Positions 5,183-45,012 of a stretch of 64,000 nt of DNA are shown here, piece by piece. Below the pieces are notes generated by a model, which ran no database searches, was not told the origin of the DNA, and saw only the letters and a list, made by a program, of their open reading frames with translations. The translations under genes and the position numbers were made by a program. Where the stretch lies: the NCBI RefSeq assembly GCF_025465275.1, contig NZ_JAODNK010000031.1:1-64000 (forward strand), written 5' to 3'. Position 1 is the stretch's first letter; the number at the start of each line of letters is the position of its first letter. Source of the DNA: Nocardia sp. (GTDB lineage: Bacteria; Actinomycetota; Actinomycetes; Mycobacteriales; Mycobacteriaceae).

Positions 5183-6613
5183 TCATCGAATCACCTCGCG
5201 ACGGCGCGCCACCATCCGCAACCCATGCTTGGGCCGCAGGGTCAAAGTAGCCTCCGGTTCGACCGGGAATCCGGGCACCAGATCGAAAACATAGTGCTGA
5301 CTCCACATTGCGGTGATCAGCACGGCCTCCATGAGTGCGAAACTCGAGCCGATGCAGATCCTCCGGCCGCCGCCGAACGGCAGGTACGCCGAACGTGGGC
5401 GGCCCTTGCCCGCGCCGGGCAGGAAGCGGGCCGGGTCGAACTGCTCCGGTTCCGGCCACCATCGCTCGTCGTGGTGGATGAAGTGCGAGGGCACGATGAC
5501 CGTGGTGCCGCGGCGAATGTGATGGCCGTCGATGACATCGTCCGCGATGGCGACCCGCGGAATTGTCCACGCGGGGGAGAAGTACCGCATTGCCTCCTGT
5601 AGGCAGGCCGAGGTCCACAGTAGTTTCGGCAGGTCCTCGACGGTCGGGGTGCGGCCCTGCAGGACGGTGTCGACCTCCGCCAGCATGCGGTCACGGGCTT
5701 CGCTATTGAGCGCCAGCAGGTACCACATCCATGACAGCGCATTGGCGGTGGTTTCGTGGCCGGCGAGCATGAAGGTGAGCGCCTCGTCCCGGACGCGCTT
5801 GAGTGGCAGTGTCCCTTCCGCATCGGCGGCGGTGAGTAGGTGATTCAGCAGATCCGGACTGTCGGTGGGGTTTTCGTAGCGCTCGGTCACCACGCGCCAT
5901 ACCTCGGCGTCGAGGGTGCGCACGATGCGCTGGATCTTGCGCAGCGGGGGCGGCAGGGGAATCGGCGTGAACGCGACCCGAGCTGTGGCCCGCCACAATG
6001 ACTTCGGTGGCGCGGCGACCACGAACAGCCGCTCCAGCCGCTCGGCGAAGCGCAGTCCGCCGGTGACCAGGCCCGACATCCGTTGCGCGATATGGCCGAA
6101 CTGCTGTCCGAACAGTGCGCTACCGACGACGTTCAGGGTCAGCTGCACCATCTCGCCGACCATGTCGATCTCGGCGCGGGCGGGTCCGGTGCCGAGCGCT
6201 GCGACACTCTCCGCGATGGGCTCGACCATCAGATCGATCAATCCGTTCAGATGTCGTCTGGCGAACATCGGGTTGAGCATGGTGCGATGTCGCTGCCAGG
6301 ATTCGCCCTCATCGGTGAAGAGGCTGATGCCGAGGATCGCGCGCAGCATCTCGTATTCGAATGCCTTCTCGTACTTGAGGCGACCCGCGTGCAATATGTG
6401 ATCGACGTAATCGGGATGGTTCAGTACCGCATACCGCCGTGTCCCCGCCCGGAATCGCAGCAGATCGGTGTCTTTGACCCCGCCGAAGATCCCGGCTCGG
6501 ATATCCAGTCCGACGGTCAAGGCCTCTATCGTCGCCGTCGAAGTGCGGGTGCGTTTGCTCGGACGTGTCGAACGATAGTGCTGCTCAGCAGCTTCGGGCA
6601 TGAGCGTAGACAT
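5183..6613 (-). CDS. Cytochrome P450
   Basis: A 476-residue P450 monooxygenase. The oxygen-binding I-helix motif is AGHETTAN, the ExxR motif appears as EAMR, and the heme loop is FGGGRRICIGSSFA with the axial Cys. The length and the SLFTDEGESWQRHRTMLNPMF segment resemble the longer, fatty-acid or sterol-type bacterial CYPs rather than the short CYP105 type; no subfamily is assigned. The ATG at 6613 has AAGGAGGG seven bases upstream, better than the in-frame start at 6637. It is divergent from a TetR gene, and the intergenic region carries nested operator-like palindromes, so local repression is likely. Confidence 0.92.
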   Translation of the reverse strand: MSTLMPEAAEQHYRSTRPSKRTRTSTATIEALTVGLDIRAGIFGGVKDTDLLRFRAGTRRYAVLNHPDYVDHILHAGRLKYEKAFEYEMLRAILGISLFTDEGESWQRHRTMLNPMFARRHLNGLIDLMVEPIAESVAALGTGPARAEIDMVGEMVQLTLNVVGSALFGQQFGHIAQRMSGLVTGGLRFAERLERLFVVAAPPKSLWRATARVAFTPIPLPPPLRKIQRIVRTLDAEVWRVVTERYENPTDSPDLLNHLLTAADAEGTLPLKRVRDEALTFMLAGHETTANALSWMWYLLALNSEARDRMLAEVDTVLQGRTPTVEDLPKLLWTSACLQEAMRYFSPAWTIPRVAIADDVIDGHHIRRGTTVIVPSHFIHHDERWWPEPEQFDPARFLPGAGKGRPRSAYLPFGGGRRICIGSSFALMEAVLITAMWSQHYVFDLVPGFPVEPEATLTLRPKHGLRMVARRREVIR

Positions 6614-6658
6614 ACCGGACCCTCCTTGGGTCGACACCGCATCGTGTCGCTCGCGCTC

Positions 6659-6701
6659 AACTGGTGACGACTGTCACCAATGACTGCGCATGTCACCAGT
6701 T
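6659..6701. promoter_or_regulatory. Nested TetR operator between P450 and tetR
   Basis: TGGTGAC (6662-6668) and GTCACCA (6673-6679) form a perfect 7-bp palindrome with a 4-base spacer. The same left half, AACTGGTGAC (6659-6668), also pairs exactly with GTCACCAGTT at 6692-6701. It lies between the P450 start and the TetR start, so it could control both. Confidence 0.7.
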
Positions 6702-6735
6702 TGTGAGCGGCCCCCGACCTTGTCAAGATGGAACA

Positions 6736-7392
6736 GTGTCGACACCGAAGACGTGGGGCGGGCGTAGCGCCGTAGAGCGCCGTACCGAGCGCAGGCAGCG
6801 CCTGATCACCGCCGCCCTGGAGATCTGGCGCGAAAACGGCTGGCCCGCAGTCACAATTCGCGCGGTGTGCGCCCGCACCTCGCTGAACGACCGCTACTTC
6901 TACGAGACCTTCACCGACCGCGACGAACTGCTCGGGGCGGCATGGGAATCGGTCCGCGACGATATGCTCGAAGCCCTCGCCACCGCCTTCGAAGACAACC
7001 TCGACCGCCCGCTGCACGAAATCGTCCGCATCGCAGCCACAGTCGTCACCGATCGTATGTCCGCTGACCCCGCCTACAGCAGAATCCTGCTCCTGCACCA
7101 CGCCGGGAGCCCTGCCCTCGAAGCGTGCCGAGTGAGCGCCATGCGCCTCACCGCCGGTCTCGTAGTAGCCGGCGCCCTCCGCGTCCTCGGCCCCGCCGCC
7201 GACGAACGCGCACTCCACATGGACGCCATCATCGGTGTGGGTGGCTTCGTGGAACTCATCACGGCCTGGCAATCCGGCCTACTCGACTGCACCGCCTCCG
7301 AAATCGTCGACCACACAGTTCGTCTGGTCTCCACCTTCAGCCTCGACCACGCAGCTGCTTTCGCGCGCCGGGAGGCTGCTGTCGACAAGTAG
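6736..7392 (+). CDS. TetR-family transcriptional regulator
   Basis: A 218-residue regulator with a classic N-terminal TetR helix-turn-helix: RRQRLITAALEIWRENGWPA then VTIRAVCARTSLNDRYFYETF. The remaining helical part is a ligand-binding and dimerisation domain of unknown specificity. The GTG at 6736 (product MSTPKTWGG) is preferred because earlier in-frame codons lie inside the operator palindromes. It is divergent from the P450 and probably represses it and itself. Confidence 0.88.
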   Translation: MSTPKTWGGRSAVERRTERRQRLITAALEIWRENGWPAVTIRAVCARTSLNDRYFYETFTDRDELLGAAWESVRDDMLEALATAFEDNLDRPLHEIVRIAATVVTDRMSADPAYSRILLLHHAGSPALEACRVSAMRLTAGLVVAGALRVLGPAADERALHMDAIIGVGGFVELITAWQSGLLDCTASEIVDHTVRLVSTFSLDHAAAFARREAAVDK

Positions 7393-7434
7393 GAATTTCT
7401 GACGACGAAGAACCGTATCGGCGCGCTCGCGCGC

Positions 7435-7887
7435 TTACGGGTGCAGCCGCCGCATGTAGTTCTCATAGACCGTCGCGAAGCCGTCCTGGTCGAATTCGAT
7501 ATCGGCGCTGAAGTCGTCGGAGCTGTAGCCGACCACGCCCTCGCCGCGTGGGAGATAGCGCTGGGCGGCGAGGCGGGCAGTCAGTTGCGGGACACTGACA
7601 TAACGCATGGTGTAGTCGTGCGGGGCGGCATCCGGCAGCAAAAGCCCGTGGCGCAGCACGGGCAGCGAGTTGAAGAACACTGAATGCTGCAGATCGAAGA
7701 AGTCGGCCCCGTCGAGGCGATGATGCACAGCCCCGTCACCGATATCGACGATCAGCTCTGAACCGTCGAGCTCCCACCGCAATTCGTAGACCAAACCGAT
7801 CTGAGTCCCGCGAGCACGATCCAGGCTCTCCACCTGAACGATCTCCATACGCGGCTCGTCGACTCCCTGCCAAACGAATGTTCGCAC
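7435..7887 (-). CDS. Putative glycolipid-binding (PF06475-like) protein
   Basis: A 150-residue soluble protein. The pattern YELRWELDG near residue 34, LRWE with alternating beta strands, the middle YVSVPQLTARLAAQRY, and the ending SADIEFDQDGFATVYENYMRRL resemble the putative glycolipid-binding family. That family is often found in mycolic-acid bacteria, and its role is not well established. It sits downstream of the deletion-bearing LLM gene on the same strand, separated by 10 bp. Assignment is by motif memory, not a search. Confidence 0.55.
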   Translation of the reverse strand: MRTFVWQGVDEPRMEIVQVESLDRARGTQIGLVYELRWELDGSELIVDIGDGAVHHRLDGADFFDLQHSVFFNSLPVLRHGLLLPDAAPHDYTMRYVSVPQLTARLAAQRYLPRGEGVVGYSSDDFSADIEFDQDGFATVYENYMRRLHP

Positions 7888-35976: not shown

Positions 35977-37251
35977 ATGACGTCTGTAGTGATAGCCGGA
36001 GCCGGGCTTGCCGGTGTTGCGTGCGCCCATAAGCTGGCTTCGGCGGGCGTCGATGTCGTTTTGATCGACCGCAATGACTATCACCAGTTTCAGCCGCTGC
36101 TGTATCAGGTTGCGACATCACAGCTACCCGCAGAGGACGTCGCGCGGCCCTTGGCGGCGATCTTCGCCAAGCATCCGAACGTGCAGTTGATCCAGTCCGA
36201 GATCATGGATATCGATTTCCGCTCTCGGTCGTTGACGACCGGCGAGGGCGAGACTGTCACGGGCCACTATCTGGTGTTGGCCGCGGGCGCGTGCGCGAAC
36301 TTCTTCGGAACGCCGGGCGCGGCGGAACATTCGTTCCCGCTGTACTCGATCGTCGATGCCGAGCGCCTGCGGCTGCATGTGCGGTCCATGCTCGAAACAC
36401 GTTCGGGGCCGCTCGATGTGGTTGTTACCGGCGGCGGGCCGACCGGCGTCGAGACCGCCGGAGCCTTCGCCGAACTGTTCGCCGCGCTGCGGACGATGGA
36501 GCACGGGGCTGCCTCGGCTCAGGTCTACCTCGTCAACCATGGTGACGCGCTGCTGGCGCCGTTCAGCGAGCGGTCACACAAATACGCCTTCGACAAGCTC
36601 ACCGAACACGGTGTGCGGGTGAAACTCGGTGTGGGCGTGAGCAAGATCGACGCCGCGAGCGTGCAACTCAGCGACGGGACGGTGCTGGCGACGCAGACCA
36701 CGGTATGGGCCGGCGGGGAATCGGCCTCGCCGGTCGCGCACGAATGCGGTGTCGCGCCGGGACATGGCGGGCGCATCGATGTGACCGCAGATCTCACGGT
36801 TGACGGGTATTGGGGCGTCTACGCGATCGGAGACGTCGCGAATATTCGTGACGGAGAGGGCAAGACGCTTCCGCAACTCGGTTCGGTGGCGCAGCAGTCC
36901 GGGGTGTGGGCGGCCGAGAACATTATCCGGGAGATCACGGACAAGGATCGGAAGCCGTTCCACTACAAGGACAAAGGCATCATGGCCATGATCGGTCGCG
37001 GGGCCGCCATCGCCGAGGTCGGCGAGCATCGCCATCACATCCAGGGCCCGGTGGCGTGTGCCGCATGGCTGGGTGTGCATGCCGCATTGCTCAGCGGCGC
37101 GCACAGCAAGGTCGATGCATTCATGTCGTGGGCCTGGGATTACATGGATCGCGATCACGCCGCACTGGTCGAATGTCATGGTGATCCGAAACGCATTGCC
37201 TGGGAAGACGACAAGAAGCCCACCCTGACGACAGTCCGTCCGCCGCGCTGA
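35977..37251 (+). CDS. ndh: Type II NADH dehydrogenase-like flavoprotein
   Basis: A 424-residue two-dinucleotide protein. The FAD motif VVIAGAGLAGVACAHKL (about residues 4-20) and VVTGGGPTGVETAGAF (about 149-164), the NAD region, bracket the typical NDH-2 core; GVYAIGDVANI near 280 is the FAD-closing motif. NDH-2 transfers electrons from NADH to menaquinone without pumping protons. Related sulfide:quinone or ferredoxin reductases share this layout, so the donor and acceptor are inferred. AAGGTGGG lies upstream of the ATG. Confidence 0.78.
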   Translation: MTSVVIAGAGLAGVACAHKLASAGVDVVLIDRNDYHQFQPLLYQVATSQLPAEDVARPLAAIFAKHPNVQLIQSEIMDIDFRSRSLTTGEGETVTGHYLVLAAGACANFFGTPGAAEHSFPLYSIVDAERLRLHVRSMLETRSGPLDVVVTGGGPTGVETAGAFAELFAALRTMEHGAASAQVYLVNHGDALLAPFSERSHKYAFDKLTEHGVRVKLGVGVSKIDAASVQLSDGTVLATQTTVWAGGESASPVAHECGVAPGHGGRIDVTADLTVDGYWGVYAIGDVANIRDGEGKTLPQLGSVAQQSGVWAAENIIREITDKDRKPFHYKDKGIMAMIGRGAAIAEVGEHRHHIQGPVACAAWLGVHAALLSGAHSKVDAFMSWAWDYMDRDHAALVECHGDPKRIAWEDDKKPTLTTVRPPR

Positions 37252-37260
37252 TCCTGGAAC

Positions 37261-37857
37261 TCACACCTTGACGCCGAGCGCCCCCGCGACGGCGCGGGTG
37301 AGGTGATCGGTGATCTCGGCAGGCTGCCAGCGCCGGTGCTCCGCCAGGTCGTAGACGACGCGTTCGTCGAAGATCGTGATCCACAGCAGTACCGCGTAGG
37401 TGACATCGAATTCGGTCGTCTTCCCTTCGCGCGCTAGCGCTTTCAGCACATCGGCGAGTCTGTCGTGCATGGCGGTGATGGCCTCGTCACCGTCCGCGAG
37501 GCGTTCGATGAATCCACTGCTGCTGCGGATGTAGCGCACCGCCGGGCCCCACTGCATCGCCTGCTCGACCCAGGTGCGGCAGAAACGGTGGAAGCGCTCG
37601 ACCGGGTCGAGATCCGCATCGGCGGCGGCATCGATCTCGGCGAAGGCTTCGAGGAGTTGTTCGATGGCGCGGCGATGGAAGGCCTGCATCGCGTCCTGCG
37701 GCGTGGGGAAGTGCCGGTATGCCGTGGCTACTCCGACGCCCGCCTCGGCGGCGAGTTCGGGGATCGAAAAGCCGACCCGACCGGCCTGCAGTAGGGCGCG
37801 GACCGCATCGACCAGCAGCACTCGGCTGCGCTGGGCATCGCTGCGGGTGTTCACGGG
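37261..37857 (-). CDS. TetR-family regulator
   Basis: A 198-residue regulator. HTH: VDAVRALLQAGRVGFSIPELAAEAGVGVATAYRHFPTPQDAM. The C-terminal half is a generic helical ligand domain. It is divergent from an MFS transporter and the intervening 170 bp hold two operator-like dyads (37969-38006), so it likely represses that exporter. GTG at 37857 or an earlier GTG at 37881 are both possible. Confidence 0.85.
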   Translation of the reverse strand, partial: PVNTRSDAQRSRVLLVDAVRALLQAGRVGFSIPELAAEAGVGVATAYRHFPTPQDAMQAFHRRAIEQLLEAFAEIDAAADADLDPVERFHRFCRTWVEQAMQWGPAVRYIRSSSGFIERLADGDEAITAMHDRLADVLKALAREGKTTEFDVTYAVLLWITIFDERVVYDLAEHRRWQPAEITDHLTRAVAGALGVKV

Positions 37858-37968
37858 CACGCTTCCATCCTGCACAAACACGTGCGGCGCCGGGGCAAGT
37901 GGGTCGAAATCGGCGCAACGGGCGAGCCGCGCCGCTCGTTGTCGTAGACCATCATCCGACTTCGAGTA

Positions 37969-38006
37969 GAGAAGTTCTTCTCAATTGTCTATTCTCTAAC
38001 CGAGAA
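37969..38006. promoter_or_regulatory. TetR-MFS operators with TTCTC/GAGAA half-sites
   Basis: GAGAAG-TT-CTTCTC (37969-37982) and TTCTC-TAACC-GAGAA (37992-38006) are two dyads made from the same half-site. The centres are 23-24 bp apart. They lie between the tetR and MFS starts. Confidence 0.65.
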
Positions 38007-38029
38007 GATCTCCTCACTTGGGAGGGTTG

Positions 38030-39199
38030 ATGAGGGCAGCGGTTCCGGGCGCGCTCCTGGTGCTGATCATGGCGCAGCCCAATATGGCCACGGGCATGAT
38101 GCCGTACTACCGGCACGCCTGGTCGCTGGCGCCGCTGCTCATCACCGTGATCTTCGCGGCCTACCTGTTCGCGCTCACGCCGACACTGTCGATACTCGGG
38201 ACACCGTCCTCGCGCAGTGGTTGGTGGTGGCGGATCGGAGTCGGCAGCGCCTTCGGCATGGCGGCGGATCTCGCTATGGCAGTGGCGCATTCGGCGTGGC
38301 CGGCCTGTGTGGCGCGGATCTGCGCCGGACTCTCGGTCGGCCTGGTGACCGGATCGCTGGCCGGATTGATCCTGGAGCGCCGGGGCGAGCGTGGTCGCAC
38401 CGCAATGGCGAGCGCGACCGTATTCGGTTCTGCGCTGGGTACGTTCGCGGCGGCGGGGCTGGCGCAGTATCTCCCCGCGCCGGGCGTCACCGTCTACCTC
38501 GTACATGCGGTGCTGCTCGGAGCTGTTGCGCTGGCGGTACTTTCCGATCGCGTCGCGCGGCCCGCCGCCGCACCGCGCGGTGCGCACGCCCCATATGTCG
38601 AGAGCGAAGCTCCGCTCGCGGGGTATCTCACCGGAATCGCCGCGTGGGTGTCCGCCGGTCTGGTGGTCGCACTGCTGCCGAGTTACGGCGCGGAGCTGCT
38701 GGGCACGAAGAATCTCACGCTGCTGGCGCTGCCGGTGACCCTGTACCTGGTCAGCGCCTGGGTCGCCCAGCGAGTCCTGGCGCCGAATACCCTTCCCGCC
38801 GAGCCGGTCACCGCGCAGCTGATCATCATCACGGGTGTGGCGGTCGCGGCCGCGGTGTCGTGGGTGCCGAGCCTGCCGCTATTGCTCTGCGGCGGCGTGA
38901 TCGCGGGTTGCGGTCAGGGCATCGCGTATCGCACCGGACTCCGGATCGTCAGTGCGGCAACAGCACCCGCCCAGCATGCCCGGATCTCCGCACGGTTCGC
39001 GGCCGTCGCCTATCTCTGCGCGGCGGTCGGCACCATCGGGCTCGGCATTGTCGCCACCGTCGCGTCGATGCGCGACGCGGTATTGGCCGCGGCCGCTGTG
39101 CTGATCGTGGTCGCCGCGACCACCTCGCTCGTCCGTCGGCGCGCAATGGCGCGCGCCGCGGACTCCCACCTCGTTCTGCAGACTTCGACAATCGCATAA
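38030..39199 (+). CDS. MFS transporter
   Basis: A 389-residue protein with about 12 hydrophobic segments and no soluble domains. The first helices are GALLVLIMAQPNMATGMMP and LLITVIFAAYLFALTPTL. GGGAGGG lies three to nine bases before the ATG at 38030. It is divergent from a TetR with matching operators, so it is probably an inducible drug or metabolite exporter. Substrate cannot be inferred. Confidence 0.8.
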   Translation: MRAAVPGALLVLIMAQPNMATGMMPYYRHAWSLAPLLITVIFAAYLFALTPTLSILGTPSSRSGWWWRIGVGSAFGMAADLAMAVAHSAWPACVARICAGLSVGLVTGSLAGLILERRGERGRTAMASATVFGSALGTFAAAGLAQYLPAPGVTVYLVHAVLLGAVALAVLSDRVARPAAAPRGAHAPYVESEAPLAGYLTGIAAWVSAGLVVALLPSYGAELLGTKNLTLLALPVTLYLVSAWVAQRVLAPNTLPAEPVTAQLIIITGVAVAAAVSWVPSLPLLLCGGVIAGCGQGIAYRTGLRIVSAATAPAQHARISARFAAVAYLCAAVGTIGLGIVATVASMRDAVLAAAAVLIVVAATTSLVRRRAMARAADSHLVLQTSTIA

Positions 39200-39256
39200 C
39201 CCGGGCGCCACGTTCCGCACGCAATTATCGGCGTGCGGCTCAGGCATGTCTGAAAG

Positions 39257-39387: not shown

Positions 39388-40824
39388 ATGGCAGCACCCA
39401 CTCGGGTCGGGCCCTCCGCCACGCAGCGGCCGACCGCATTCCGCGTACGCAATACCGACGCCTCGATCGCCTCGGCGACAACCACCGACGGGGCCCTGAA
39501 ACGCACTCTCGGGCGCACCGATCTGATCGCCATGGGGGTCGGCACCATTGTCGGCGCAGGCATATTCGTCACCACCGGCATTGCTGCGGCAACCAAGGCA
39601 GGCCCCTCGATTGTCCTGTCATTCCTGCTGGCAGGGGTGATCTGTGTGCTCGTGGCGCTGTGCTACAGCGAGCTGGCCGCAATGACACCGGTATCCGGCA
39701 GCGCCTATACCTACACTTATTCGACCATGGGTGAGGTGCCGGCCTTCCTTGTCGGATGGAATCTGCTGCTCGAATATGCGGTGGCCGCGGCGGCAATTGC
39801 CATCGGCTGGTCCGGATTATTCGGCGCCGCACTGACCTCGCTTTTCGGTGTCACCCTTCCGAAGGCAATAGCGGCGGGGCCCAGTGATGGCGGAGTAATC
39901 AATCTCCCGGCGGTTGTCATCGTCGGACTCATCGTCGCCGTGCTGGTTTTCGAGGTGAAGATTGCCGCCGCTGTAGTGAAAACGCTGGTGGCGCTGACAG
40001 TTGCCGTACTCATTGTGGTGATCGCGGTCGGTGCGCCCCATGTGCACGTCGCCAATTGGTCGCCGTTCATGCCCTTCGGTGTCAATGGCATCGCGGCGGG
40101 GGCGGCCATGGCCTTCTTCGCCTATCTCGGCTTCGATGTGGTCGCGACCTCGGCCGAGGAGACCCGTAATCCGCGCCGGGATATGCCGTGGGGCATTATC
40201 GGCTCGGTGGTCATCGCGACCATCCTGTACATCGCCGTGAGTGCCGTATTGACCGGTGTCGCACCGTATTCCAGCCTGAACAACTCCGCTCCGGTGGCGA
40301 CCGCGCTGGCCGCGATCGGCGCCGGGTGGATCGGCAAGGTGATCCTGGTGGCCTCGGTGATCGCCCTGACCAAGGGCCTGCTGATGGTGTTCTACGGGCA
40401 GACCCGCCTGCTGTTCGCCATGAGCCGCGACGGGCTGGTGCCGAAGGCATTGTGCCGCACCAGCTCCCGTGGGGCGCCCGTGCGGCTGAGCGTGCTGCTG
40501 GGCACGGTGATCGCCGTGGTGGCCGGGCTGACGCCCATCGACACCGTCGCCGAACTGGTGAATATCGGCGCGCTGTTCGCCTTCCTCATCGTGGCCGTGG
40601 GCGTGATGATCCTGCGCCGCACCGATCCCGACCGGCCGCGACCGTTCCGGACTCCGCTCATGCCGCTGGTGCCGATCGTCGCGATCGCCGGATGCATCTG
40701 GCTGGCAACAACATTCGAGACGTTGACCTGGCTGCGATTCGTGATCTGGAGTGCCGTCGGCGGAGTGCTCTACCTCACCTACGGCCGCCGGCACTCCGTG
40801 GTCGCCGCGGGAGGTGCCGCGTGA
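39388..40824 (+). CDS. APC-family cationic/amino acid permease heading a five-gene operon
   Basis: A 478-residue polytopic protein of the CAT-like APC branch. A short basic N-tail precedes GRTDLIAMGVGTIVGAGIFV, the family's TM1 signature, and a stretch near 85-95 (SELAAMTPVSGSAYTYTY) marks TM3. About 12 helices total. It likely imports the substrate of the downstream enzymes, probably a basic or neutral amino acid. Its last codon overlaps the next gene's GTG in GTGA. The start has weak ribosome binding. Confidence 0.85.
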   Translation: MAAPTRVGPSATQRPTAFRVRNTDASIASATTTDGALKRTLGRTDLIAMGVGTIVGAGIFVTTGIAAATKAGPSIVLSFLLAGVICVLVALCYSELAAMTPVSGSAYTYTYSTMGEVPAFLVGWNLLLEYAVAAAAIAIGWSGLFGAALTSLFGVTLPKAIAAGPSDGGVINLPAVVIVGLIVAVLVFEVKIAAAVVKTLVALTVAVLIVVIAVGAPHVHVANWSPFMPFGVNGIAAGAAMAFFAYLGFDVVATSAEETRNPRRDMPWGIIGSVVIATILYIAVSAVLTGVAPYSSLNNSAPVATALAAIGAGWIGKVILVASVIALTKGLLMVFYGQTRLLFAMSRDGLVPKALCRTSSRGAPVRLSVLLGTVIAVVAGLTPIDTVAELVNIGALFAFLIVAVGVMILRRTDPDRPRPFRTPLMPLVPIVAIAGCIWLATTFETLTWLRFVIWSAVGGVLYLTYGRRHSVVAAGGAA

Positions 40825-41918
40825 CCGCACAGCTGGACAGTTTCTATCCGACCCAGGTCACCTTCGGCACCCTCGACGAGATCCATCGTGCCGCCGCGGC
40901 GGCTCTGGACTCCGATGTATTCGACTTCGTCGAAGGCGGTGCGGGCAAGGAGATCACGCTGCGCGCCAATCTGGCCGCGTTCGGCCGCTGGCGGATTCTG
41001 CCCGAACCGATGAGTGGGGTCGCCGCACCGTCGACCCGCACCGAACTGCTCGGGATATCCCTCGAAACCCCCATAATTACCGCACCTTTCGGCGGTGACG
41101 CCCTGTTCCATCCCGACGGCCACCTCGCTGTCGCCCGGGCTGCTCAGCATCGGGGTGCGCTGTCGATCGTTCCCGAGGCCGGGAGCTTCTCCTACGAACA
41201 GGTGCACACGGTTGCCCCGCGTGCCGCGCGCATTGCCCAGCTGCATCCGTTCGCGCATGCGGCTACGGTGGCGGACCGGGTGCGGCGGGCAGGTTTCGAG
41301 GCACTCTGCGTCACGGTGGACTGCCCGGTCGGCGGCTTCCGCACCCGCAATATGGGCAATCGCTTCGATCCGGACCAGCGCCTCTTCGCGGGCAATCTCA
41401 CCGGCGAGAACGGCGCTCCCGGAGTTGCCGAGGTATTCGGGCAGCTGCTCAAACAGGGCGGGTCCGTGTGGAATTGGGACCAGTTGACGGATGCGGCGGC
41501 CGATTTCGGGCTGCCGTGGATCGCCAAGGGCATTCTCACGCCCGCGGCGGCCGAACGTGCCCTCGCCGCAGGTGCTTCGGCGCTGGTGGTGTCGAATCAC
41601 GGCGGCCGCCAGCTGGATCCGGCGCCTGCCAGCCTGGAGATGCTGCCGGGTATTCGAGCAGCGGTCGGGGCCGAGCTGCCGATCCTGCTGGACAGCGGCA
41701 TTCGCACCGGCAGCGACGTTTATCTGGCACTGGCGCTGGGCGCGGATGCGGTGATCATCGGCCGCTCGGCCATCTACGGGCTCGCGGCGGCCGGTGAGGC
41801 CGGGGTCGATCGGGTACTGGAATTGCTCACCGAAGAATTGCGGACGCTGATGATCCTTTCCGGCGCCGCGACGATCGGCGATATCGGCATCACCCGCCTC
41901 GCGAGGGCCGTCTCGTGA
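40821..41918 (+). CDS. FMN-dependent 2-hydroxyacid oxidase
   Basis: A 365-residue TIM-barrel enzyme of the glycolate/lactate oxidase family. FDFVEGGAGKEITLRANLAAF opens the barrel, AFGRWRILPEPMSG and SIVPEAGSFSYEQ are family stretches, and the catalytic His-Gly-Gly-Arg is VSNHGGRQLD with Lys in WIAKGIL. The C-terminal LLDSGIRTGSDVYLALALGADAVIIG binds the FMN phosphate. It oxidises a 2-hydroxyacid to the 2-ketoacid with oxygen as acceptor or a dehydrogenase partner. GGGAGG precedes the GTG. Coupled to both neighbours by 4-bp overlaps. Confidence 0.88.
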   Translation: MTAQLDSFYPTQVTFGTLDEIHRAAAAALDSDVFDFVEGGAGKEITLRANLAAFGRWRILPEPMSGVAAPSTRTELLGISLETPIITAPFGGDALFHPDGHLAVARAAQHRGALSIVPEAGSFSYEQVHTVAPRAARIAQLHPFAHAATVADRVRRAGFEALCVTVDCPVGGFRTRNMGNRFDPDQRLFAGNLTGENGAPGVAEVFGQLLKQGGSVWNWDQLTDAAADFGLPWIAKGILTPAAAERALAAGASALVVSNHGGRQLDPAPASLEMLPGIRAAVGAELPILLDSGIRTGSDVYLALALGADAVIIGRSAIYGLAAAGEAGVDRVLELLTEELRTLMILSGAATIGDIGITRLARAVS

Positions 41919-42280
41919 GCGCCGCACCGTTCCCGTCGTTCCGCAGCGGTGGCGGCCTGGTGTTCACCTCCGGCCTGGCCGCGATCGACCCCGCCACCAT
42001 GACCGTGTCCGCAACCACCTTCGACGAGCAGGCCGCCGCGGTATTCGACCAGCTCGACACGGTACTGACCGAAACCGGAAGCTCGCGCGAGGAGGTACTC
42101 GAACTCGAGTGCTATCTGGCCGACCGCCAATGGTTTCCGGCCTGGAATGCCGCCTTCAGCAAATATTTCACGTCAGCCGCACCGGCGCGGACCACGACCG
42201 TCACCACCCTGCCCATTGAGGGGCTGCTCATCGAAATCCAGGCGATTATCGTCGCCGCAGCTCGAGGAAGATCATCATGA
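41915..42280 (+). CDS. RidA-family enamine/imine deaminase
   Basis: A 121-residue protein. The opening SFRSGGGLVFTSGLAAIDP is the Rid-family N-strand, and ECYLADRQWFPAWNAAFSKYF with the closing PARTTTVTTLPIEGLLIEIQAIIVA includes the conserved PxRT arginine. RidA hydrolyses reactive enamines and imines made by PLP or flavin amine chemistry. Its presence in this operon implies an imine or enamine intermediate. Overlaps both neighbours by 4 bp. Confidence 0.85.
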   Translation: MSAAPFPSFRSGGGLVFTSGLAAIDPATMTVSATTFDEQAAAVFDQLDTVLTETGSSREEVLELECYLADRQWFPAWNAAFSKYFTSAAPARTTTVTTLPIEGLLIEIQAIIVAAARGRSS

Positions 42281-43281
42281 CCACAGTGACACCGCTCGTG
42301 CATGCCCACGCCGCCATCGGCGACTTCACCATTCGCGACGTCATCGAGGGCCAGACCGCCGGTCAGCTCATTGTCGCGGCCGACGACTGGGGTTGGTGGA
42401 CAACCCTTTTGGGCGGCGACACCATTGAGCCCAGTACCGGCATTCAGCAGACCGTCGCCCTCGGCCTGGTGCGCGCCGGCTTCCTGGCCCGGCGCGGCCA
42501 CCGCTACCACCTCACCCACACCGGCCACGATGTCGGCAAGAACCGCGGGTTCGTCCGGTGCGCGGTGCGCGGCTGGGAACCCACCTTCCGGCAGCTCTCC
42601 GCCGCCGCAGACGACGAATACATCCCCGCCGCAACCGAACCCGGGGAGGTGGCCCGCGCGTGCACCGATATCGCGCGGCGGCGGCCGGAGATATTCGCGA
42701 CCATCGGCGCCTCCATCGCCGCCGACATCCCGGGCTGCACCATCGATCTCGGCTGCGCCGACGCCGGACGGGTCCAGGCGCTGGCCGGGCTCGCGCCGCG
42801 GGAGCGATTCCTCGGCGTCGATATCGAGGACGAGGTGATCGATGCCGCCACCGGCGAAGTCACGGCACTCGGCCTCGCCGATCGGATCACGCTGCTGGCG
42901 GGTTCGGTGCAGCCGGAGTCTCAGCTGCCGGCTTGGCTCGGCAGTGTCGACCGGGACAGCGTCACGACCGCCATGTCGTTCTTCCTGCTGCATCAACTCG
43001 CCAGCGATGGCGAGGGTATCGCGGCGGTGCTGCGCGGCTGGATGGAGTGGTTCCCGAACATGCGCCGCCTCGTCATCGGCGACGGCTATCTGCTCGAGGC
43101 CGAGCACTGGACCCAACAGCCGTGGTTCTCACCGACTTACGAGATCTACCACACCATCACCGGCGTGCGGCTGTGGACGCAGCACGAGTACGAGCGCGCG
43201 TTCGCGGAGCTCGGCTGGTCGGTGACGCGGCGGATGGAGGACCACACCATGCTGGTCACCACCATCCTGGAACGCGGGTGA
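42277..43281 (+). CDS. SAM-dependent methyltransferase, O/C-methyltransferase fold
   Basis: A 334-residue two-domain methyltransferase. The N-terminal part (about 1-140) is helical with a winged-helix look. The catalytic half carries CTIDLGCADAGRVQALAGL (motif I), ERFLGVDIEDEVIDAA (motif II acidic), and AMSFFLLHQLASDG. Layout resembles 2-ketoacid C-methyltransferases such as MrsA/MppJ types and O-methyltransferases; this is a fold-level resemblance only. Between a RidA and an FAD dehydrogenase, it may methylate an imino or keto acid. Confidence 0.75.
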   Translation: MTTVTPLVHAHAAIGDFTIRDVIEGQTAGQLIVAADDWGWWTTLLGGDTIEPSTGIQQTVALGLVRAGFLARRGHRYHLTHTGHDVGKNRGFVRCAVRGWEPTFRQLSAAADDEYIPAATEPGEVARACTDIARRRPEIFATIGASIAADIPGCTIDLGCADAGRVQALAGLAPRERFLGVDIEDEVIDAATGEVTALGLADRITLLAGSVQPESQLPAWLGSVDRDSVTTAMSFFLLHQLASDGEGIAAVLRGWMEWFPNMRRLVIGDGYLLEAEHWTQQPWFSPTYEIYHTITGVRLWTQHEYERAFAELGWSVTRRMEDHTMLVTTILERG

Positions 43282-44624
43282 CAACCGGATTCGACGGCAC
43301 GCCCTTCGGCATCGATACCCGACCCTCGGTGCTCGAGCAGTTCACCGCCGACGAGACCGGCCGCCTCGGCCATCGCCCGCGTGGCATCGCCTACGCGGCC
43401 GGTCTCGACGACGTGCTGGCGGTCGTCGGCTGGGCACGTGACACCCGCACGCCACTTATCGCTCGTGGTGCGGGCACCAGCCTGGAGGGGCATCTGCTGG
43501 CCCGCGGTGATGAGTTGATACTCGATCTGTCGCAGGCGAATTCGATTCTGGATCTCGCGCCCGCCGACTTCACCGCCACCGTGCAGCCGGGTGTCACCCG
43601 CACGCAGCTCAATGCGGCAGCGGCCGAATTCGGCCTGCAGTTCACCGTGGATCCCGGCGCGGACGCCTCGCTGGGCGGGATGGCCGCGACCAATGCCAGT
43701 GGCACGACCAGCGTGCGGTACGGCGGCATGCGCGCCAATGTTCCTGCGCTGCAAGCAGTGTTCGCCGACGGCTCGGCGGTGCGGCTGGGCCGGGCGGTGC
43801 GCAAGAGCTCGAGCGGCTATGACCTGAAAGATCTGGTGATCGGCTCGGCGGGCACCCTGGCAATTATCACCGAGCTCACCGTGCGGTTGCATCCGATTCC
43901 GGAATGGCTGCGGTCGCTGCGGATTTCGTTTCCGACAGTTGGGGAAGCAGTGGCCGCCGCGGTCGAACTACTGGGGCTTGCGGTGCCGGTGAGCCGGCTC
44001 GAGTTCGTCGACGCCGCGAGTATGGCCGCCATCAACGCATTTCGCGGCACCGGCTATGCCGAATCACCGGCCTTGTTCATCGATCTGGAGGCGGCTTCGT
44101 CCGCGGCGGCGGACGCGGACGAGTGGGAGATCCAGCGGGTCTGCCGCACGTATCACGCGGACGGTATCGAAGTGGCCCGCACCCATACCGAGCGTCACGC
44201 CCTGTGGGAAGACCGCCACCACCTGTTCTTCGCCCTCAAAGCCCGCAGCCCAGGGCACCGTTTCCTGATAACCGACACCGCCGTCCCCTACTCCCGCATC
44301 CCCGATGCGGTCGGCACGGCCACCCGGCTCGGCGCCGAACTCGGTGTGGATATCAGCGTCGCGGGCCATATCGGCGACGGCAACGTACACGTAGTGGTGC
44401 CCTACACCGACACGACACTGCCGACCGCCCTGCGATTCTCCGACGAGGTGGTGCGGCACGCCCTCGCGGTGGGCGGCACCGCCTCCGGAGAGCACGGCAT
44501 AGGTCTGACCAAGAAGAAGTACCTGCGCGCCGAACACGGCCCCGCAGTGGACATCATGACCACCATCAAACGGGCCCTGGACCCACACGGATTGCTGAAC
44601 CCGGGCAAGATCCTCGACGCCTGA
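43278..44624 (+). CDS. FAD-linked 2-hydroxyacid dehydrogenase, GlcD/DLD family
   Basis: A 448-residue VAO-type flavoprotein. The PCMH domain shows RGAGTSLEGHLLARGDELILDLS and VQPGVTRTQLNAAAAEFGLQFTVDPGADASLGGMAATNASG, with IGSAGTLAIITELTVRLHP ending it. The C-terminal cap has VAGHIGDGNVH and GGTASGEHGIGL, with the last conserved GLLNPGKIL. These enzymes oxidise D-lactate, glycolate or other 2-hydroxyacids. GTG at 43278 overlaps the methyltransferase stop. Longer upstream frames are out-of-register artefacts. Confidence 0.88.
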   Translation: MTTGFDGTPFGIDTRPSVLEQFTADETGRLGHRPRGIAYAAGLDDVLAVVGWARDTRTPLIARGAGTSLEGHLLARGDELILDLSQANSILDLAPADFTATVQPGVTRTQLNAAAAEFGLQFTVDPGADASLGGMAATNASGTTSVRYGGMRANVPALQAVFADGSAVRLGRAVRKSSSGYDLKDLVIGSAGTLAIITELTVRLHPIPEWLRSLRISFPTVGEAVAAAVELLGLAVPVSRLEFVDAASMAAINAFRGTGYAESPALFIDLEAASSAAADADEWEIQRVCRTYHADGIEVARTHTERHALWEDRHHLFFALKARSPGHRFLITDTAVPYSRIPDAVGTATRLGAELGVDISVAGHIGDGNVHVVVPYTDTTLPTALRFSDEVVRHALAVGGTASGEHGIGLTKKKYLRAEHGPAVDIMTTIKRALDPHGLLNPGKILDA

Positions 44625-44664: not shown

Positions 44665-45012
44665 TCAGTCCCGGTGGCTCACAACATTGACGATGCGCCC
44701 GCTCGGGTCGCGAACGAAGAACCTGCGTACGCCCCAGGGTTCGTCCCGCAGGGCGTACACGATGTCGGCCCCTGCGGCAGTGAGGGTTTCGTGGACCGCG
44801 TCCACGTCGGCAACCTCGACGCTGAAGTCCGGCTGCTCGGGGCCCGCACCCGGCTCGACCAGCGTGACCTGAGCAGTCGGGTTCGAGGGTGAAGCCATGG
44901 TTACCACCCAACCGAGGTCCATGACTTCCTCGAACCCGATGAGGCCGTAGAACTTCCGGCTCTCAGCCAGATCTGCGGTCGTAATGTCGGGCACTACCCG
45001 GCGAATGCTCAT
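44665..45012 (-). CDS. VOC-superfamily (glyoxalase/bleomycin-resistance) protein
   Basis: A 115-residue beta-alpha-beta-beta-beta protein. The opening SIRRVVPDITTADLAESRKFYGLIGFEEVMDLG and the closing GVRRFFVRDPSGRIVNVVSH are VOC signatures; the terminal NVVSH holds a plausible metal His. Family members bind drugs or isomerise small molecules. The substrate is unknown. It lies 41 bp downstream of a small 52-residue gene on the same strand, possibly in one unit. Confidence 0.82.
   Translation of the reverse strand: MSIRRVVPDITTADLAESRKFYGLIGFEEVMDLGWVVTMASPSNPTAQVTLVEPGAGPEQPDFSVEVADVDAVHETLTAAGADIVYALRDEPWGVRRFFVRDPSGRIVNVVSHRD

What the first reader, a model, noticed from the sequence alone, without database searches (positions are those of the whole stretch)
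39388..44624. Five-gene translationally coupled operon: permease, FMN 2-hydroxyacid oxidase, RidA, SAM methyltransferase, FAD 2-hydroxyacid dehydrogenase
Every junction is a 4-bp overlap (GTGA or ATGA), so the five products are made together in fixed proportion. Two different flavoenzymes of opposite stereochemical families (glycolate-oxidase type and GlcD type) bracket RidA and a methyltransferase. RidA removes reactive imines or enamines, so a 2-imino or enamine intermediate is implied. The set reads like uptake and interconversion of 2-hydroxy/keto/amino acids with a methylation, perhaps on carbon. I know no described pathway with this exact order.
Basis: partly seen in the sequence, partly recalled or inferred. 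Interest (0 to 1): 0.78.

Follow-up and report, generated by a model that had tools for sequence, protein, structure and literature searches.

The report
Operon predicted to C-methylate keto acids
Five overlapping genes of a Nocardia, two of which (a flavin oxidase with an altered active site and a methyltransferase) occur together in 26 of 148 genomes searched in the genus, likely turn an imported amino acid into a carbon-methylated keto acid, a building block otherwise known from antibiotic-making pathways.

Summary
In detail: five genes with four 4-bp overlaps (39388-44624). It is no one-strain oddity: in the genus, FMN enzyme and methyltransferase (MT) occur together in 26 of 148 genomes, and no genome had the FMN enzyme alone. 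APC-FMN-RidA-MT order recurs in Nocardia, Williamsia and Mycolicibacterium; the FAD gene follows in 19 of 31 loci. The MT belongs with metal-dependent alpha-keto-acid C-methyltransferases: MppJ, MrsA and SgvM fill the first 23 structure matches, and both metal-ligand histidines are kept. The FMN enzyme is not a canonical hydroxyacid oxidase: the catalytic Tyr is His142. RidA stays beside this FMN enzyme in five distant loci without the MT and is fused to the MT in Patulibacter. A distant genus keeps FMN, RidA, FAD and TetR relatives but has an MppJ-type enzyme, a second prephenate dehydratase and a chorismate mutase, pointing to phenylpyruvate there. Best model: an imported, probably aromatic, L-amino acid is oxidised to an imine, RidA frees the keto acid, MT methylates C3; the FAD enzyme would return D-hydroxy acid to the keto pool. 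Activities are untested. The paper listings seen (ten searches, open-licence texts) did not describe this gene set. New variant of a known kind.

The parts
37261..37881 (-). Divergent TetR-type regulator, conserved at the locus
   Evidence: PF00440 4.5e-6; TetR cluster in 29 of 34 oriented loci, two duplicates included; 41-46% identical relatives in the distant f92 loci
37969..37982 (.). Perfect palindrome GAGAAGTTCTTCTC between TetR and MFS genes, candidate operator (conservation not tested)
38018..39199 (+). MFS transporter, conserved upstream gene, possible exporter
   Evidence: PF07690 1.6e-6, below gathering score; MFS cluster in 31 of 34 oriented loci, two duplicates included
39388..40824 (+). 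APC-family amino-acid permease
   Evidence: PF13520 7e-52; nearest NCBIfam BcaP 533 bits, below its cut-off of 690
40821..41918 (+). FMN enzyme of the alpha-hydroxyacid oxidase fold with a changed active site; predicted amino-acid oxidase
   Evidence: PF01070 6e-98; AF2 model closest to Hmo; His142 for the catalytic Tyr
41244..41246 (+). Codon of FMN-enzyme His142 (place of Tyr128 in Hmo)
   Evidence: sequence; alignments; for a dissenting pairwise alignment
41915..42280 (+). RidA-family protein, predicted imine/enamine deaminase
   Evidence: PF01042 1.1e-18; PAR motif with the Arg kept (sequence; orthologs)
42277..43281 (+). SAM-dependent methyltransferase of the alpha-keto-acid C-methyltransferase group
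   Evidence: MppJ 3e-15; Foldseek MppJ, MrsA, SgvM on top; hhalign 99.8% to the MppJ-like profile
42991..42993 (+). Codon of MT His239, predicted metal ligand (MppJ His243)
   Evidence: SgvM His244 by position, PMC10502145 passages
43150..43152 (+). Codon of MT His292, predicted metal ligand (MppJ His295)
   Evidence: SgvM His296 by position, PMC10502145 passages
43278..44624 (+). GlcD/LDHD-type FAD-linked D-2-hydroxyacid dehydrogenase, predicted; accessory (19 of 31 loci)
   Evidence: PF01565, PF02913; LDHD 1.5e-87; HxGDGNxH and GEHGIG motifs

Best explanation
The operon likely takes up an L-amino acid, probably an aromatic one, oxidises it to a 2-imino acid with an FMN enzyme predicted to be an amino-acid oxidase, would hydrolyse the imine to the 2-keto acid with RidA, and would methylate that keto acid on carbon 3 with a two-histidine metal-dependent methyltransferase. 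Shown: the gene set, its order and its conservation; the methyltransferase's kinship and both metal-ligand histidines; the Tyr-to-His change in the FMN enzyme (by profile and multiple alignment); RidA's attachment to the FMN gene and its fusion to the MT in one species. Inferred: all activities, the substrate and the order of steps. The accessory GlcD-type FAD enzyme would oxidise D-2-hydroxy acid, formed when the keto acid is reduced, back to the keto pool. The 3-methyl-2-keto acid would be exported by the neighbouring MFS protein or aminated by an enzyme encoded elsewhere. TetR would sense substrate or product. No peptide-assembly gene is in the operon, so the methylated acid or its amino acid may itself be the product.
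For: (1) MT: TIGR04543 2-ketoarginine MT 8.6e-13, below its cut-off; MppJ 3e-15; AF2 pLDDT 92.6, Foldseek ranks 1-23 all MppJ (TM 0.80-0.82), MrsA (0.72-0.73) or SgvM (0.63-0.67); His239 and His292 invariant in 22 relatives, and both His present in 31 of 31 loci, remnants included (29 by pattern, the other two). (2) FMN enzyme: Tyr of the hydroxyacid-oxidase dyad is His; of 120 relatives 107 show AQxHP, 5 Tyr, 8 not matched by the pattern; three readable own-genome paralogs of five keep QLY. (3) RidA adjoins FMN with no CMT recognised in the locus in 5 loci of distant genomes, behind a TrpX-like importer. (4) RidA-MT fusion P0049. (5) In 4 g320 genomes FMN, RidA, TetR and FAD relatives sit with an MppJ-type CMT (8.5e-66), a second prephenate dehydratase and a chorismate mutase; FMN and FAD of L113 hit the window genes best in the window's genome (53% against 36% next, 51% against 35%). 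(6) An LldD-family enzyme, MftD, is reported to do an oxidative deamination (PMC7491314 passages).
Against: No activity is known to me for any member. MppJ's Asp244 is Gln240 here (invariant), so metal or substrate may differ from MppJ. Five FMN relatives keep Tyr. In plain pairwise alignments with Hmo (5zzz) and one lactate oxidase (7f22) HMMER set the Tyr place against Ala139 and not His142; two other pairwise alignments (9rc7, 6r9v) and the profile alignments give His142. No aminotransferase is in the operon. FAD gene not next to MT in 12 of 31 loci. Seven of the 10 distant CMT loci fetched have no FMN or RidA neighbour. In g320 a dedicated phenylpyruvate supply makes an amino-acid oxidase less needed for that substrate. 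G832, without the CMT kit, also has two PDT genes. The aromatic substrate is carried over from a locus whose MT is only 28% identical. Loss of the Tyr128 hydroxyl in Hmo makes an oxidative decarboxylase (PMC6677016 passages), another possible outcome of Tyr loss.
Confidence: 0.5

Rival explanations
1. Two-enantiomer 2-hydroxyacid route: the FMN enzyme oxidises L- and the FAD enzyme D-2-hydroxy acids to one keto acid, which MT then methylates; RidA is a general protectant.
For: Both enzymes fall in 2-hydroxyacid oxidoreductase families; the model's closest structures are Hmo, and Hmo oxidises (S)-3-phenyllactate to phenylpyruvate (PMC6677016 passages); both Arg and the catalytic His are kept.
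Against: Catalytic Tyr replaced by His; FAD gene not next to MT in 12 of 31 loci; amino-acid-type importers at both kinds of locus; RidA tied to FMN.
Confidence: 0.25
2. The FMN enzyme is a four-electron oxidative decarboxylase (or amino-acid monooxygenase giving an amide), so that the operon shortens the acid by one carbon after or instead of methylation.
For: Hmo Y128F converts mandelate to benzoate and phenyllactate to phenylacetate (PMC6677016 passages); here that Tyr is His and the residue at Hmo Ala79 is Gly91.
Against: A His is not a Phe; RidA would have no clear role; decarboxylation would destroy the substrate of the CMT if it came first.
Confidence: 0.12
3. Catabolic or detoxifying operon: removal of a toxic amino-acid analogue or keto acid, with methylation as inactivation and MFS as efflux.
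For: Divergent TetR plus MFS; patchy presence and decayed copies.
Against: A second prephenate dehydratase and a chorismate mutase at the g320 locus look biosynthetic.
Confidence: 0.1

Closest known systems
MppJ (phenylpyruvate C3-methyltransferase, mannopeptimycin; the pathway name is recalled)
   Same: Fold (TM 0.80-0.82), both metal-ligand His (that these are MppJ's ligands is recalled, and stated for SgvM in PMC10502145)
   Different: 22-23% identity; Asp244 is Gln240; mannopeptimycin is made with peptide synthetases (recalled), absent from the operon
MrsA, 2-ketoarginine methyltransferase (TIGR04543)
   Same: Keto-acid C-MT kinship (8.6e-13; TM 0.72-0.73); small gene set without peptide assembly (recalled)
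   Different: 48 bits against a cut-off of 425; no aminotransferase here; two flavoenzymes and RidA instead
SgvM (alpha-ketoleucine C-methyltransferase)
   Same: Metal held by two His, H244 and H296 (PMC10502145 passages), by position H239 and H292 here (SgvM itself was not aligned residue by residue)
   Different: 17-18% identity, TM 0.63-0.67
Hmo, p-hydroxymandelate oxidase
   Same: Closest solved structures of the FMN model (TM 0.82-0.86, 36-37% identity); Phe at the Hmo Phe24 place, Arg163, His252 and Arg255 equivalents kept
   Different: Tyr128 place is His142; PFGGD and PE[AV]G motifs mark the subfamily
MftD, pre-mycofactocin synthase
   Same: LldD-type enzyme reported to do an oxidative deamination (PMC7491314 passages)
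   Different: 184 bits against a cut-off of 471; substrate is not a free amino acid
LDHD / GlcD FAD dehydrogenases
   Same: Both domains, metal and GEHGIG motifs, 1.5e-87 to 8jdc
   Different: Below the glcD equivalog cut-off (264 against 568); no GlcE/GlcF partners in the operon

Membership tests
alpha-keto-acid C-methyltransferases (MppJ/SgvM/MrsA) | Two-domain fold shared with MppJ, MrsA and SgvM | tested here: met
   Foldseek ranks 1-23; hhalign 99.8%
alpha-keto-acid C-methyltransferases (MppJ/SgvM/MrsA) | Two His metal ligands | tested here: met
   H239 and H292 align to MppJ His243 and His295; the two-His zinc site is described for SgvM (PMC10502145)
alpha-keto-acid C-methyltransferases (MppJ/SgvM/MrsA) | C-methylation of a 2-keto acid | not testable with these tools
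   needs enzyme assay
MppJ orthologs proper | Asp after the first ligand His (MppJ D244; invariant in the 16-row MppJ-like alignment) | tested here: not met
   Gln240, invariant in 22 rows
2-ketoarginine methyltransferase (TIGR04543 equivalog) | Score over the curated cut-off | tested here: not met
   48.1 against 425
FMN alpha-hydroxyacid oxidases | PF01070 domain and fold | tested here: met
FMN alpha-hydroxyacid oxidases | Carboxylate-binding Arg pair and catalytic His | tested here: met
   R174, R263, H260
FMN alpha-hydroxyacid oxidases | Tyr of the Tyr-His catalytic dyad (Hmo Tyr128) | tested here: not met
   His142 by profile and multiple alignment; two pairwise alignments put Ala139 there, also not Tyr; dyad described in PMC6677016
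FMN L-amino-acid oxidase (proposed) | Oxidises an L-amino acid to the imino acid | not testable with these tools
   inferred from RidA linkage and amino-acid-type importers
RidA imine deaminases | PF01042 and the catalytic Arg (E. coli Arg105; number and role recalled) | tested here: met
   Arg of the PAR motif in 28 of 28 RidA reads (23 as PAR[TS], 5 as PARI)
GlcD/LDHD D-2-hydroxyacid dehydrogenases | FAD_binding_4 plus FAD-oxidase_C with the HxGDGNxH metal motif | tested here: met
   17 of 19 loci, misses L037 (cut by contig end) and L062 (GHVADGNVH)
BcaP branched-chain permease equivalog | Score over the curated cut-off | tested here: not met
   533 against 690

The most novel reading that the evidence does not exclude
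A free-standing 'oxidise, hydrolyse, C-methylate' relay: an FMN hydroxyacid-oxidase scaffold rebuilt by a Tyr-to-His switch into an L-amino-acid oxidase hands its imine to RidA, used as a pathway enzyme and not for damage control, which hands the keto acid to a fused or co-translated two-His metal C-methyltransferase. The product is a free beta-methylated (aromatic) keto or amino acid, made and exported as a small antimetabolite or signal by Nocardia and other actinobacteria, with no aminotransferase and no peptide synthetase in the operon.
Probability: 0.35. Interest if true: 0.72.

Novelty: new variant of a known kind. Interest (0 to 1): 0.56.

Why it matters
If true, RidA would be an obligate pathway enzyme between an oxidase and a C-methyltransferase, which makes the question of dedicated RidA roles directly testable. 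A hydroxyacid-oxidase scaffold would have become an amino-acid oxidase by a defined active-site change. The genes would give a short route from an amino acid to a chiral beta-methyl keto acid, wanted in biocatalysis, and would mark an unrecognised metabolite of Nocardia that has no peptide synthetase gene to flag it.

Tried and rejected
Considered and set aside: O-methyltransferase function (MppJ, MrsA and SgvM fill Foldseek ranks 1-23 and 26; ranks 24-25 are Rv2258c, and the first enzyme titled an O-methyltransferase is rank 27); a mycofactocin role (MftD profile far below cut-off); a strain-specific set.

Led nowhere: plasmid search gave 12 records below 60% identity, whose neighbourhoods I did not open; order-level search around G671 gave 0 of 30 genomes; of the weak CMT loci fetched, L093-L097, L100 and L102 (7 of 10) show no FMN or RidA neighbour; a shared operator between the two intergenic regions was not seen (no shared 9-mer). 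Papers, listings only unless named in the report as read: one general flavin review; one paper, on beta-methylphenylalanine made in E. coli (PMC11496134, not opened); none; searches listed nothing on this gene set, and searches listed fewer papers than matched. The genome-wide base rate of 4-bp overlaps could not be computed.
Full report
WHAT IS THERE. Five ORFs on the + strand, 39388-44624, overlap by 4 bp at each of four junctions. Upstream lie an MFS gene (38018-39199, +) and a divergent TetR-type gene (37261-37881, -). Pfam names the permease, the FMN enzyme, RidA and the FAD enzyme; the methyltransferase (MT) has no Pfam match at 1e-3. The window's genome has one match to the MT at 1e-3.

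IS IT CONSERVED. In the genus, 29 of 148 genomes match the MT at 1e-10 and 26 of 148 match the FMN enzyme at 1e-100. All 26 are among the 29. The three MT-only genomes are two with remnants (G025, G073; loci L045, L063) and one weak 30% match (G117). At family level the MT is in 8 of 301 genomes, 2 of 31 genera; in a phylum sample in 2 of 396, one of them the window's own genome and the other a 30% match at E 1e-6; a profile search of a class sample matched 16 of 394 genomes at 1e-6, of which all but the window's genome and G073 are remote (best 3e-25). The FMN enzyme at 1e-95 matched 10 of 296 genomes of a class sample: the window's own and nine of family f92. Of 31 distinct loci (L031-L051, L056-L063, L066, L067; L064 and L065 dropped as duplicates of L047 and L048; L068, the G117 match, dropped as distant), 28 hold APC, FMN, RidA and MT in order, and 19 have the FAD gene next, one of them cut by the contig end. 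In two of the 28, genes are incomplete: APC and FMN in L061, FMN in L042. Exceptions: L045 and L063 are remnants; L046 (N. miyunensis) is rearranged, with TetR, APC, FMN and RidA turned against MFS and MT. In L049 (Mycolicibacterium) and L062 the MFS match is weak (34-36%) and lies beyond TetR. Named genera with the order are Nocardia, Williamsia and Mycolicibacterium. FMN and MT relatives also share an organism and a longest-contig length in Streptomyces sp. NPDC002928 (P0125 and P0043, 157027), and share lengths 11102, 12229 and 8409; those contigs were not fetched.

METHYLTRANSFERASE. NCBIfam's nearest model is 2-ketoarginine methyltransferase, 8.6e-13 but far below cut-off; the nearest solved sequence is MppJ. 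The AlphaFold2 model (pLDDT 92.6) is closest to MppJ (TM 0.80-0.82), then MrsA, then SgvM; these fill Foldseek ranks 1-23, and ranks 24-25 are Rv2258c. In SgvM one zinc is held by H244 and H296 and binds the keto acid (PMC10502145, passages read). MppJ His243 and His295 align to His239 and His292 here, and both are invariant in 22 relatives. MppJ's neighbouring Asp244 (altered in the solved mutants shown) is an invariant Gln here. So the chemistry is most likely keto-acid C3-methylation, with a metal site of the SgvM two-His type; this is inference from kinship. ApyS, another relative, methylates the beta carbon of an alpha-keto acid in a peptide (PMC11117315, passages read).

FMN ENZYME. The predicted model (pLDDT 83.8) is nearest to Hmo, p-hydroxymandelate oxidase. 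Hmo anchors its substrate with Tyr128, Arg163, His252 and Arg255, and Tyr128 with His252 is described as a highly conserved dyad of the family (PMC6677016, passages read). Here both Arg and the His are kept, and Phe24 of Hmo is Phe too, but the Tyr is His142. The placing of His142 rests on the profile alignment with human HAO1 (QLY against QLH), on the multiple alignment with own-genome paralogs, and on five relatives that read QLYP where the others read QLHP. Pairwise HMMER alignments agree for 9rc7 and 6r9v but set Ala139 at that place for Hmo 5zzz and for 7f22; by either placing there is no Tyr. Among 120 relatives, 107 have AQxHP, 5 have Tyr and 8 were not matched by the pattern. Three own-genome paralogs keep QLY; two others (L088, L089) could not be read by the script. 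PFGGD (119 of 120) and PE[AV]G (111 of 120) are further family marks. Two invariant acids, Asp93 and Glu119 (19 rows), could pair with a substrate amine; their position was not measured, because no coordinates were available.

RIDA. It keeps the Arg of the PAR motif in all 28 reads. In the distant family f92, four g295 genomes and one g320 genome have FMN and RidA side by side behind a TrpX-like binding protein, permease and ATPase, with no CMT recognised in the locus: L114, L116, L117, L119 and L118. L115 ends at the contig edge just after FMN, so RidA cannot be judged; it has a 239-aa methyltransferase-like ORF (E 1e-5 to the window's MT) upstream of its importer genes. The TrpX match is below the equivalog cut-off (161 and 175 bits against 390). 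So RidA goes with the FMN enzyme whether or not the MT is there, which fits an imine made by the FMN enzyme. P0049 of Patulibacter medicamentivorans is RidA fused to this MT.

A DISTANT VERSION OF THE KIT. In four g320 genomes (L113/G883, L120/G891, L101/G961, L099/G1073) the locus reads importer-FMN-RidA, TetR(-), MT-FAD-prephenate dehydratase-chorismate mutase-MFS. The MT there is an MppJ relative (8.5e-66) and only 28% identical to the window's over 168 residues; FMN and FAD of L113 find the window genes as best hits in the window's genome (one direction only was tested). These four genomes each have a second prephenate dehydratase, at this locus; G1000, same genus without the MT half, has one; G832, without the MT, has two, neither at the locus. 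Whether the chorismate mutase is a second copy was not tested. Hence the CMT differs while its partners stay, and phenylpyruvate is the likely keto acid there. Carrying 'aromatic' over to Nocardia is inference.

MODEL AND LIMITS. See best explanation. Not shown: any activity, the substrate, the product, the direction of transport. The FAD enzyme is the least explained part, since it is not next to the MT in 12 of 31 loci.

LITERATURE. None of the titles and abstract beginnings listed described this gene set; lists were cut in several, and only open-licence PubMed Central texts were searched. Passages were read in PMC10502145, PMC11117315, PMC6677016, PMC7491314, PMC6149928 and PMC6778850. PMC6149928 states that some L-amino-acid oxidases depend on FMN. 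MftD, an LldD-family enzyme, is reported to perform oxidative deamination. PMC6778850 gave nothing on amino-acid substrates in the terms searched.

VERDICT. A real, conserved operon, most likely a beta-methyl keto-acid pathway of a new layout: a new variant of a known kind.

Noticed in passing
P0049 (Patulibacter medicamentivorans, 466 aa): RidA domain fused to this methyltransferase in one protein.
   Followed up: partly
L045 (N. seriolae), L063 (G073), L061 (G141): Decayed copies of the operon: MT remnants without FMN, or an APC-FMN stretch shortened; described only.
   Followed up: partly
L042 (N. wallacei 760185014), about 6341-7564: FMN gene called as two pieces, possibly a frameshift or an assembly fault.
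   Followed up: no
L046 (N. miyunensis): Locus rearranged: TetR/APC/FMN/RidA face away from MFS-MT.
   Followed up: no
L114, L116, L117, L119 (g295): TrpX-like ABC importer with FMN and RidA but no methyltransferase; a glyoxalase-like gene lies beyond RidA.
   Followed up: partly
window 35977-37251: Pyridine nucleotide-disulphide oxidoreductase (PF07992), NADH-dehydrogenase-like, next to the TetR gene; among the loci found only in the closest relative L056.
   Followed up: no
window 44665-45012 (-): Glyoxalase-family gene facing the end of the operon; among the loci found only in L056.
   Followed up: no
window 39215-39238: 8-bp-arm inverted repeat CCGCACGCAATTATCGGCGTGCGG between MFS and APC genes.
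   Followed up: no
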